NCBI GenBank assembly: GCA_029287575.1
Contig: JARFQW010000010.1
Span: 1 to 64,000, forward strand
DNA: 64,000 nt
Reading direction: 5' to 3'
Source of the DNA: Gammaproteobacteria bacterium
GTDB lineage: Bacteria; Pseudomonadota; Gammaproteobacteria; Steroidobacterales; XN24
Shown piece by piece: positions 60,790 through 64,000 of this stretch. The position numbers and the translations under genes are program-made. The notes below the pieces were generated by a model, which was not told where the DNA came from, ran no database searches, and saw only the letters and a program-made list of their open reading frames with translations. Positions within the stretch are counted from its first letter, which is position 1; every line of letters starts with the position of its first letter.

Positions 60790-62664
60790 TCAGGTTTTCC
60801 CGAGCTCGCCGATCCGGCTCTGCAGCTTGTCCCCTTTTTCGCGCAGTCCCGTCAGCAGCTCGCTGCGCCGGTCGAGCACCGTGTCGTCCTCCATGTCGAT
60901 CCGCGCTTCTTCCAGCGGCGATGACAACAGTTCCCGCCGGGTCCGGAACAGACCGTCGGCTGCCGTCACGATCTTTGTGAGGACCTCGTAGGCGTAGGCC
61001 GAATCGTTCATGAGAGACGACGCCATTTCCGGTGTGATCAGGTGGTCACGAATAAGCTGATCGAGGCGGCCGTTCGCGAGAATGTCGTCCTCTGCCATGG
61101 CGTCCTTGACCGCTTCCAGCAGAGCGACAGCCACGTCGGGGTCCTCGGTTTCCCGCGCAGTCTGGATATCCCTGAGCATCTGGCCCAGGTGCGTCCGGAG
61201 ACGGTCGTACTCGGCGCGCATCGTGTCGTTTTCGGAGTTCATGTAGGTGCCCAGGTTTCGCTCGAGCAGGCGCAGGGCCTTGACGCTCTCGACCAGATCT
61301 CTCGCGGCGCCCCGCAGCCGGTAGACGGCATCGGTCTGCTCGGGCGTCATGTTCGAGGTGGCTTTCGACGCGAACTCCACGATCTCGCTGTAGATGCCCT
61401 TCATCCGCGTTCGATAAAGTTCGTCCACGTTCGTTTGTTCGTAGGCCCTGGCCTCGCCAACGACCTCGGACATGGGCCGCGTTCCGAGGACTTCGGCCAG
61501 GGGGAGCTGCAGGACCCGCGCGATGATTTCGATCGCGTTCAGGCCCAGGTGGCGGATCTCGCTGTCGAGTGCGACCAGCGCGGCGTCGGGAAACTCTCCC
61601 ACCGCTTCGTTGATGAACATGGCTTGTTCGACGCCGGCTTCGATCGGCGTCTTGTCCGGGATCACCCGCTCCAGGAAGCGCACCATCCACCCCACCAGCG
61701 GCATGAACACGACAACGCCGAGGACGTTGAAGATCGTGTGGAACAAAGCGAGCTTCAGGGTGTAGTCGTCCGCGGCAATGCCGAACCAGCCGGCGGAAAT
61801 GTCGACAAGGGTCTTTATCGGTCCGATGAGCAGGATGGCGATCAGTCCCGTGCCGAAGTTGAAGATCATGTGGGCGCCTGCCAGCCGCCTCCCGGCGGGA
61901 TTGGCATTGAGCGAGCCGAGCACCGCGGTGATGGTCGTGCCGACGTTTGCGCCGATTGCCAGCGCCAGGCCGTTGTCATAGGTGACCTGGCCGGTGGCCA
62001 GAGCGGCGATCGTCAGCATCAGTACTGCATGGGAGGACTGCATGACGACGGTGGCGACGATGCCGATCGAGGCGTAGAGGAGCAGCCCGGGCAGGCCGGC
62101 CACCGCATACTGCGAAAGATCGATGCTCTGGCTCAGGCTTTCGAAGCCGTCTTTCATGTTGGCGATGCCCAGAAACAGCAGGGACACGCCGAACAGGATC
62201 TGGCCGCCGGCCTTGAGTTTCCGGTCGGACTGGAAAATCAAGAGGATGCCGAAGACCAGCATGGGCAGTGCGAACTTGGCGATGTCCATCTTTACCCCCA
62301 CCGTTGCCATGAGCCAGGCGCCGGTGGTCGTGCCGATGTTCGATCCGAAAATGATGCCGATGCCCTGAGCCAGGCTGATCAGGCCGGCGCTCAGGAACGT
62401 GATGGTCAAGAGGGATACGAGGGAGCTGGACTGCATGAGCGTCGTCGTCACCAGTCCAAAGACCAGGCTGCGTATCGGCCCCTTGGTCGCGACGTCGAGG
62501 ATCCGCTCCAGAATGCCGCCGGTGAAAGTCTGAAAGCCTTCCTCCAGGGACAGCATCCCGAACATGAAGATCGCCACGCCGGCAGCGACCTGCATGAACT
62601 CGGGGCTGATCCAGAAACCCCAGCTGAGGATCAGAATGATGGAGGGAAGGATCACTTTCTTCAT
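60790..62664 (-). CDS. Na/Pi cotransporter family protein with PhoU-like domain
   Basis: A 624-residue inner-membrane protein. The N-terminal part has about nine helices with the inverted-repeat signatures TTTLMQSSSLVSLLTI...FGSNIGTTTGAW and VVMQSSHAVLMLTI...GANVGTTITAVLGS. The C-terminal 270 residues form a helical PhoU-like cytoplasmic domain. It is an NptA-type transporter of phosphate or a related anion. ATG 62664 (MKKVIL) is preferred. It is divergent from ppk2. Confidence 0.93.
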   Translation of the reverse strand: MKKVILPSIILILSWGFWISPEFMQVAAGVAIFMFGMLSLEEGFQTFTGGILERILDVATKGPIRSLVFGLVTTTLMQSSSLVSLLTITFLSAGLISLAQGIGIIFGSNIGTTTGAWLMATVGVKMDIAKFALPMLVFGILLIFQSDRKLKAGGQILFGVSLLFLGIANMKDGFESLSQSIDLSQYAVAGLPGLLLYASIGIVATVVMQSSHAVLMLTIAALATGQVTYDNGLALAIGANVGTTITAVLGSLNANPAGRRLAGAHMIFNFGTGLIAILLIGPIKTLVDISAGWFGIAADDYTLKLALFHTIFNVLGVVVFMPLVGWMVRFLERVIPDKTPIEAGVEQAMFINEAVGEFPDAALVALDSEIRHLGLNAIEIIARVLQLPLAEVLGTRPMSEVVGEARAYEQTNVDELYRTRMKGIYSEIVEFASKATSNMTPEQTDAVYRLRGAARDLVESVKALRLLERNLGTYMNSENDTMRAEYDRLRTHLGQMLRDIQTARETEDPDVAVALLEAVKDAMAEDDILANGRLDQLIRDHLITPEMASSLMNDSAYAYEVLTKIVTAADGLFRTRRELLSSPLEEARIDMEDDTVLDRRSELLTGLREKGDKLQSRIGELGKT

Positions 62665-62796
62665 CTGGGTTCTCACACGTCGTATCTACCCTCTACAGGG
62701 TGGCACCCGCCGGCGATTGCGGCAATCCCGGGTGGCGGGCAGGGTCATGGCCGCTATAGTTGGCAAAGATGCACGGTTATGGCCGCGGGGAGCGTC

Positions 62797-63693
62797 ATGG
62801 GGAAGCAGGCAGCGGGACAGGGAGAAAGCGAGCGGATGCCGGATGCCGAATCGGAACACGGTTCCGGTGCGCCAGGGCCTTCGCCGGACCGGCCAGCGGA
62901 CTGGTATACGAAAAAGGGCAGGCTGAAGCGGACGATCTACGAATCCGAGCTGCGGCGCCTTCAGGTAGAGCTCGTTGTTCTCCAGGAGTGGGTCAAGCAC
63001 CACAAGAAAAAGGTCGTCATCCTTTTCGAGGGGCGGGATGCCGCCGGCAAGGGCGGATCGATCAAGCGGATCGTGGAACGCCTCAACCCCCGGGTAGCGC
63101 GTATCGCCGCCCTGCCCGCGCCCACCGAGCGGGAACGGACCCAGTGGTATTTCCAACGCTACGTGGCGCACTTGCCGGCGGGCGGCGAAATCGTGCTGTT
63201 CGACCGCAGCTGGTATAACCGGGCCCTGGTCGAGCGTGTCATGGGGTTCTGCACCCGGGATGAGTTCCTCGAGTTTGCCCGCTCGGTTCCGGAGTTCGAA
63301 CGCATGCTAGTGCGTTCCGGAACAACTCTCATCAAGTACTGGTTCTCGGTCAGTGACGACGAGCAGGAGCGCCGTTTCCAGGCCAGGATTCACAATCCGG
63401 AAAAACGCTGGAAGCTGTCGCCCATGGATCTCGAGTCACGGCGACTGTTCAGGGAATACTCCCGCGCCAAGGACGAGATGTTCAAATTCTCCGACATCAA
63501 GCAGGCGCCCTGGTGGGTCATTCCGGCGGACGACAAGCGCCGCGCCAGGCTCAACTGCATCTCCCATCTCCTGGACAGCCTGCCCTACGAAGACATCATG
63601 CCGGATCCGCCGGTCCTGCCGCCAAAGGAAGACAGCAAGATCTACGTCCGCTCGCCGTTCGAGGACCAGAATTTCGTTCCGCTAAAGTATTAG
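62797..63693 (+). CDS. ppk2: Polyphosphate kinase 2
   Basis: A PPK2 of about 298 residues, which transfers phosphate between polyphosphate and nucleotides. Walker A is GRDAAGKGGS (about 79-88) and the lid/Walker B region FDRSWYNRALVERVMGF follows, with WKLSPMDLESRRLFREYSRAKDEMF near the C-terminus. ATG 62797 follows GGGGAG; ATG 62779 and ATG 62836 are alternatives. The long upstream open frame is antisense to the transporter and not coding. Confidence 0.93.
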   Translation: MGKQAAGQGESERMPDAESEHGSGAPGPSPDRPADWYTKKGRLKRTIYESELRRLQVELVVLQEWVKHHKKKVVILFEGRDAAGKGGSIKRIVERLNPRVARIAALPAPTERERTQWYFQRYVAHLPAGGEIVLFDRSWYNRALVERVMGFCTRDEFLEFARSVPEFERMLVRSGTTLIKYWFSVSDDEQERRFQARIHNPEKRWKLSPMDLESRRLFREYSRAKDEMFKFSDIKQAPWWVIPADDKRRARLNCISHLLDSLPYEDIMPDPPVLPPKEDSKIYVRSPFEDQNFVPLKY

Positions 63694-63751
63694 CCGATCA
63701 GCCGGCGGCCAGCTTCTCTGACAATCACTATCCGTTTAGCCGGAGGTATCC

Positions 63752-64000
63752 ATGGCGAACGAAGGCCTGCACGAACGATACGAAGACCTCAGCGACGAGA
63801 CCAGGGACATGCACCGGGCCATCATCTCGCTGATGGAAGAGCTCGAAGCCGTTGACTGGTACAACCAGCGGGTCGATGCCTGCACGGATCCCGAGCTGAA
63901 GAAAGTCCTCGCCCACAACCGGGACGAGGAGAAAGAACACGCGGCGATGACCCTGGAGTGGATACGCCGCCGGGACCCGGTGTTCGACAAGGAGCTCAAG
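63752..64000 (+). CDS. Encapsulated-ferritin-like protein (EncFtn), partial
   Basis: The frame is open from ATG 63752 to the end of the window (83 codons). Two helices, ETRDMHRAIISLMEELEAVDWYNQRVDACTDPELKKVL and NRDEEKEHAAMTLEWIRRRDP, match encapsulated ferritins, with ferroxidase Glu in EELEAVDWY and Glu/His in EEKEHAAM. Known members oxidise iron inside encapsulin shells and carry a C-terminal targeting peptide, which is off the window. CGGAGG lies 8 bases before the ATG. Confidence 0.85.
   Translation, partial: MANEGLHERYEDLSDETRDMHRAIISLMEELEAVDWYNQRVDACTDPELKKVLAHNRDEEKEHAAMTLEWIRRRDPVFDKELK

What the first reader, a model, noticed from the sequence alone, without database searches (positions are those of the whole stretch)
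63752..64000. Edge gene is an encapsulated ferritin: encapsulin locus probably just off the window
The open frame matches EncFtn, a cargo iron oxidase that is packed in encapsulin shells and usually lies directly upstream of the encapsulin gene. The C-terminal targeting peptide and the shell gene should lie just past base 64000.
Basis: partly seen in the sequence, partly recalled or inferred. Interest (0 to 1): 0.6.

Follow-up and report, generated by a model that had tools for sequence, protein, structure and literature searches.

The report
Shell-less relative of encapsulated ferritin
The gene cut off at the window edge is a small iron-oxidising ferritin relative of the kind first found packed inside protein shells (encapsulins), but this one has no packing tag and its draft genome shows no shell gene; it sits next to an iron/zinc efflux pump gene instead, so it most likely works free in the cell.

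Summary
The edge gene is an EncFtn-family ferritin (PF22277, 147.9 bits for the full protein; best solved match Nitrosomonas europaea 3K6C, E 1.4e-38). Read on to the contig's end (68,908), the gene stops at 64,051 as a 99-aa protein ending LFTDGEIGHGHGHD, without a targeting peptide. No shell gene follows, and none (Pfam PF04454 or PF19307 over cut-off) is found in the 92.8%-complete genome. A FieF-like cation efflux gene overlaps its end by 35 nt, then two small membrane-protein genes. This is the known 's-FLP' class, for which a 2024 review (PMC11202242) left open whether the short tail is an undefined targeting peptide. I tested that: in 369 class-level genomes, 83 carry a short EncFtn and only 4 of them also a shell, against 15 of 286 without one: no association (p = 1). 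All 19 shell-bearing genomes have a separate EncFtn copy directly beside the shell gene, 17 with a targeting peptide. Ferroxidase residues are invariant in the short class. Best reading: a decameric ferroxidase working without a shell. New member of a known kind; the new parts are the co-occurrence test and a lineage-specific PPK2-EncFtn-FieF cluster.

The parts
63752..64000 (+). EncFtn-family ferritin, short form (s-FLP) without targeting peptide; continues past the window to 64051 (99 aa in all; L004:3753-4052)
   Evidence: ferroxidase residues E30, Y37, E60, H63 and entry-site E29/E32 present. Beyond the window, in extended coordinates: FieF-like CDF at 64017-64985 (+), VC0807-family protein at 65020-65712 (+), PF04020 membrane protein at 65715-66092 (+)
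63742..63746 (+). ribosome-binding-site-like GGAGG before the EncFtn start
   Evidence: sequence
62797..63693 (+). polyphosphate kinase 2 (PPK2), 298 aa, 58 nt upstream of EncFtn, same strand; adjacency kept in all six EncFtn-bearing genomes of the family

Best explanation
The gene encodes a non-encapsulated member of the EncFtn ferritin family (the 's-FLP' class of PDB 3k6c). Two-helix subunits are inferred to pair around a shared di-iron centre and to form a ring-shaped decamer that oxidises Fe2+ in the cytoplasm. With no shell to receive the mineral, the inferred role is iron detoxification or buffering: the ferric product is passed to other sinks (the genome has three other ferritin-superfamily genes), while the FieF-like pump encoded by the overlapping next gene would export excess Fe2+/Zn2+. 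The His-rich tail may bind metal rather than target a shell. Shown: family, intact ferroxidase residues, no targeting peptide, no detected shell gene, gene order, independence of short EncFtn from shells across the class. Inferred: decamer, ferroxidase activity, free cytoplasmic state, co-expression with the pump, function of the tail.
For: Full-length protein: PF22277 147.9 bits and 3k6c over residues 1-83 without gaps; the literature says 3k6c is a decamer (PMC11202242). Ferroxidase residues of R. rubrum EncFtn (Glu32, Tyr39, Glu62, His65; PMC5012862), shifted by two in the alignment, are E30, Y37, E60, H63 here and invariant in 183 of 183 short EncFtn rows. The tail lacks a targeting peptide, as in 184 of 184 EncFtn rows without a neighbouring shell, against 38 of 41 with a targeting-peptide-like motif beside a shell (some loci overlap). 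No shell gene on the rest of the contig or over cut-off in the genome. Class survey: 79 of 83 genomes with a short EncFtn have no shell; the other four hold a separate EncFtn beside their shell gene. Next gene is FieF-like (2qfi, E 3.4e-83).
Against: The genome is a 208-contig draft, 92.8% complete, so a missing shell gene elsewhere cannot be excluded for this organism alone. No oligomer, activity or localisation data exist for this protein. Only three of six EncFtn-bearing genomes in the family have the pump gene there, and other short EncFtn genes have no constant neighbour, so the functional link to FieF is weak. A divergent shell that PF04454 and PF19307 miss could exist.
Confidence: 0.85

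Rival explanations
1. The short EncFtn is encapsulated after all: the conserved tail LFTD-KPIAHE is an uncharacterised targeting peptide, as tabulated as putative in PMC11202242, and the shell gene lies elsewhere or is of an unknown family.
For: The review lists LFTD(E/N)KPIAHE as a putative, uncharacterised targeting sequence and says the matter is unclear. The tail is well conserved across the class.
Against: Short EncFtn and shell genes are statistically independent in 369 genomes (4 of 83 against 15 of 286, Fisher p = 1). The LFT(D/E) part also occurs in targeting-peptide EncFtns before their linker (for example YLFTTGDITHLEEE...FTVGDLKGD in L154), so it is the end of the shared domain rather than a tag of this class.
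Confidence: 0.07
2. The protein is a metallochaperone or metal-sensing partner of the FieF-like pump: the EncFtn ring hands metal to the pump through its His-rich tail, with translation coupled through the 35-nt overlap.
For: Overlap of the two genes with no later ATG/GTG/TTG before the conserved part of the pump; pump gene adjacent in three of six EncFtn-bearing family members; His present in the tail of 178 of 184 short rows.
Against: The pump gene is absent from this place in the other three EncFtn-bearing genomes of the family, and of the 80 database loci only one has a FieF-like gene nearby, about 1.5 kb downstream. An association limited to one family says little about the class.
Confidence: 0.06

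Closest known systems
s-FLP class of EncFtn, type structure PDB 3k6c (Nitrosomonas europaea NE0167), PMC11202242
   Same: Length (95-99 aa), near-identical domain (phmmer E 1.4e-38, ungapped over 1-83), LFTD...H tail, no targeting peptide
   Different: His-rich tail GHGHGHD slightly longer than the usual LFTDKPIAHE; FieF-like gene overlaps it downstream (not compared with the N. europaea locus, which was not held)
Classical encapsulated ferritin (FLP-TP), R. rubrum Rru_A0973 / H. ochraceum Hoch_3836 (5da5, 5n5f, 7oe2)
   Same: EncFtn fold by sequence, same ferroxidase and entry-site residues
   Different: No 10-40 aa linker with a GSL-type targeting peptide; no shell gene downstream or detected in the genome
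FieF (YiiP) cation diffusion facilitator, 2qfi
   Same: The downstream gene aligns over residues 20-304 (E 3.4e-83) with the DxxxD and HxxxD metal sites kept
   Different: Scores 368 against the NCBIfam FieF equivalog cut-off of 420, so it is FieF-like rather than a certified FieF

Membership tests
EncFtn ferritin family (PF22277) | Match to the family model over its length | tested here: met
   147.9 bits against a cut-off of 27, model positions 2-85 of 85
EncFtn ferritin family (PF22277) | Di-iron ligands Glu32, Glu62, His65 and Tyr39 (R. rubrum numbering), ExxH motif | tested here: met
   E30, E60, H63, Y37 in this protein; invariant in 183 short rows
EncFtn ferritin family (PF22277) | Decameric ring with ferroxidase activity | not testable with these tools
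   Inferred from the 3k6c decamer reported in PMC11202242
Encapsulated ferritin (FLP-TP) | C-terminal targeting peptide after a 10-40 aa linker | tested here: not met
   Protein ends LFTDGEIGHGHGHD at residue 99
Encapsulated ferritin (FLP-TP) | Encapsulin shell gene adjacent or in the genome | tested here: not met
   None on the remaining contig; best PF04454 hit 11.7 bits, below cut-off 24.3; no PF19307 hit; genome 92.8% complete
s-FLP class (3k6c) | Short form, about 95-101 aa, no targeting peptide, LFT(D/E)...H tail | tested here: met
   99 aa; tail aligned with class members
FieF-type CDF (downstream gene) | Cation_efflux plus ZT_dimer domains and DxxxD/HxxxD metal site | tested here: met
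   PF01545 130.8 bits, PF16916 81.3 bits; residues in the 2qfi alignment
FieF-type CDF (downstream gene) | NCBIfam FieF equivalog cut-off | tested here: not met
   368.2 against 420

The most novel reading that the evidence does not exclude
Short EncFtns form a widespread shell-free branch of the EncFtn family in Proteobacteria that solves the 'where does the mineral go' problem in a way not yet known, in this lineage by coupling a ring ferroxidase to a FieF-type efflux pump and a polyphosphate enzyme.
Probability: 0.2. Interest if true: 0.6.

Novelty: new member of a known kind. Interest (0 to 1): 0.35.

Why it matters
EncFtn is studied mainly as an encapsulin cargo, and the databases name the whole family 'encapsulin-associated'. 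In the class sampled here most EncFtn-bearing genomes (79 of 98) have the short form and no detectable shell. That makes the open question in the 2024 review directly testable: what an EncFtn ring does with ferric iron when there is no compartment. It also warns that finding an EncFtn does not imply an encapsulin locus.

Tried and rejected
Encapsulin just past the edge: rejected by reading the contig to its end. Family 2 encapsulin: no PF19307 hit, but that model's control rang weakly in only one control genome, so it is a weaker test. A universal partner gene for short EncFtns: clustering of the neighbours of 80 database loci and 15 further loci gave no partner shared by more than 8 of them; the largest two clusters are, judging by their representatives and positions, EncFtn itself and frames antisense to it. 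A fusion of EncFtn to the pump: rejected, stop codon at 64049-64051. The N. europaea record for 3k6c's own gene neighbourhood was not in the collections. No structure prediction was run because an ungapped solved homologue exists. The tree of 191 EncFtn domains puts shell-linked proteins in a few clusters (5 label changes against 19.3 in shuffles) but has only 86 columns and weak deep support, so I draw no order of events from it.

Full report
Observation. The frame at 63752 is real. It opens with ATG after a GGAGG site and runs past base 64000. The visible 83 residues score 138.7 bits to Pfam EncFtn-like. They align without gaps to N. europaea NE0167 (3k6c, E 1.4e-38) and also match the encapsulated ferritins of H. 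ochraceum and R. rubrum.

What lies past the edge. The window is bases 1-64000 of a 68,908-base contig. The gene ends at 64051 and encodes 99 aa: MANEGLHERYEDLSDETRDMHRAIISLMEELEAVDWYNQRVDACTDPELKKVLAHNRDEEKEHAAMTLEWIRRRDPVFDKELKDALFTDGEIGHGHGHD. There is no linker and no GSL-type peptide. The next gene, at 64017-64985 and overlapping by 35 nt, is a cation diffusion facilitator with Cation_efflux and ZT_dimer domains. Its closest solved relative is FieF (2qfi, E 3.4e-83), with D60/D64 and H168/D172 at the positions of the FieF metal site (the identity of those FieF residues is from my own knowledge). It scores below the NCBIfam FieF equivalog cut-off, so I call it FieF-like. The pump frame has no later ATG, GTG or TTG before its conserved part, so the overlapping start is probably real (inference). 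Two small membrane-protein genes follow (VC0807 family at 65020-65712 and PF04020 at 65715-66092). The rest of the contig holds further ORFs, among them (by eye, not scanned) a glyoxalase-like and an EamA-like protein, and no shell.

No shell in the genome. PF04454 gives only a sub-threshold 11.7-bit hit (cut-off 24.3) and PF19307 none. The genome is 92.8% complete, so this is strong but not final for one organism. It has three other ferritin-superfamily genes (PF00210).

Known class, open question. A 2024 review (PMC11202242) names this class s-FLP, typified by 3k6c. [quoted passage not shown] The present protein ends LFTDGEIGHGHGHD, a variant of that tail.

Test by co-occurrence. In 369 genomes drawn evenly from the class, 98 have a strong EncFtn hit and 19 have an encapsulin. 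I fetched the DNA of every strong EncFtn hit and read the tails. All 19 shell genomes have an EncFtn domain directly beside the shell gene. Its tail carries a targeting-peptide motif in all but two: G296, which ends FTVGKP, and G232, where the domain runs on in frame into the C-terminal half of the shell. The remaining 79 genomes have no shell, and none of their EncFtns carries a targeting peptide; 70 of these genomes are, by the listed values, at least 90% complete. Four shell genomes (G052, G232, G272, G283) have a short EncFtn as well, at another place. So 4 of 83 genomes with a short EncFtn have a shell, against 15 of 286 without one: odds ratio 0.91, Fisher p = 1. If the short form needed a shell, shells should be enriched; they are at background. 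The species are not independent draws, so the p-value is only indicative, but the absence in 79 genomes does not depend on it. A wider sample of 398 genomes from the phylum agrees: short EncFtns mostly in genomes without a shell, and the two clear targeting-peptide forms (G109, G525) beside shells. Two genomes there (G442, G462) hold a divergent EncFtn and a shell at unlinked places.

The tail. The LFT(D/E) part is shared by targeting-peptide EncFtns, which continue into a linker (for example YLFTTGDITHLEEE...FTVGDLKGD in L154), so it marks the end of the common domain. The part specific to the short class is the short, usually His-containing end (His in 178 of 184 rows). A metal-binding role is a guess.

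Ferroxidase site. R. rubrum EncFtn coordinates iron by Glu32, Glu62, His65 and Tyr39, with an entry site at Glu31/Glu34 (PMC5012862). With the two-residue offset these are E30, E60, H63, Y37 and E29/E32 here. All six positions are invariant in 183 short rows (some loci overlap). The short class is therefore most likely under selection as an iron-binding protein and not a decayed cargo.

Gene neighbourhood. In all six EncFtn-bearing genomes of the organism's family the order is PPK2 - EncFtn - (FieF-like) - VC0807 - PF04020. The pump is present in three of the six (G000, G002, G003) and absent from this place in G001, G004, G006. PPK2 also precedes EncFtn in G020 of the same order. Outside that, 80 database loci from many Proteobacteria share no constant neighbour. 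So the cluster is lineage-specific and gives only weak functional evidence.

Mechanism and verdict. Most likely a shell-free, ring-shaped ferroxidase for iron detoxification or buffering, here next to an iron/zinc efflux pump gene. Family membership, intact site, missing tag, missing shell and gene order are shown; oligomer, activity, free state and cooperation with the pump are inferred. The finding as written (encapsulin locus off the edge) is refuted by its own criteria. The useful residue is a clean negative answer, at the level of genome content, to whether short EncFtns are shell cargo, and the observation that NCBI's TIGR04535 name 'encapsulin-associated' fits proteins of genomes without shells (it matched all 22 members tested at E below 0.001; the curated cut-off was checked for this protein only).

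Noticed in passing
L234 (G232:C227:2954-9205), minus strand: An EncFtn domain runs in frame, right after ...DTYLYSEGSICGLEE, into the C-terminal half of an encapsulin (from model position 116), the shell's N-terminal half being absent: a deletion fusion, decayed locus or assembly collapse.
   Followed up: partly
L237 (G007:C72:9521-15634): EncFtn and encapsulin pieces lie in broken frames (EncFtn matches only 38 model positions; shell in two pieces), while the same genome keeps an intact short EncFtn: looks like a decayed encapsulin locus.
   Followed up: partly
L196 (G111:C20:62265-68513): An EncFtn in a genome without a detected shell, 122 aa long with an Ala/Lys/Pro-rich tail (KAEKPAAKPKAAPKAKKPTPKSE), unlike both the short class and targeting peptides.
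   Followed up: no
L260-L263 (G462, G442, G509, G658): A divergent EncFtn (37-40% identity, tail ILFTTGDIVKAGE.GEKKVD) in one genus of the phylum; two of the four genomes have an encapsulin at an unlinked place. Relatives at about 41% identity lie on Bradyrhizobium plasmids.
   Followed up: no
window 60790-62676 and 62797-63693: A large membrane protein that reads like a Na/phosphate cotransporter (by eye, not scanned) faces away from PPK2 just upstream of EncFtn; phosphate, polyphosphate and iron genes are side by side.
   Followed up: partly
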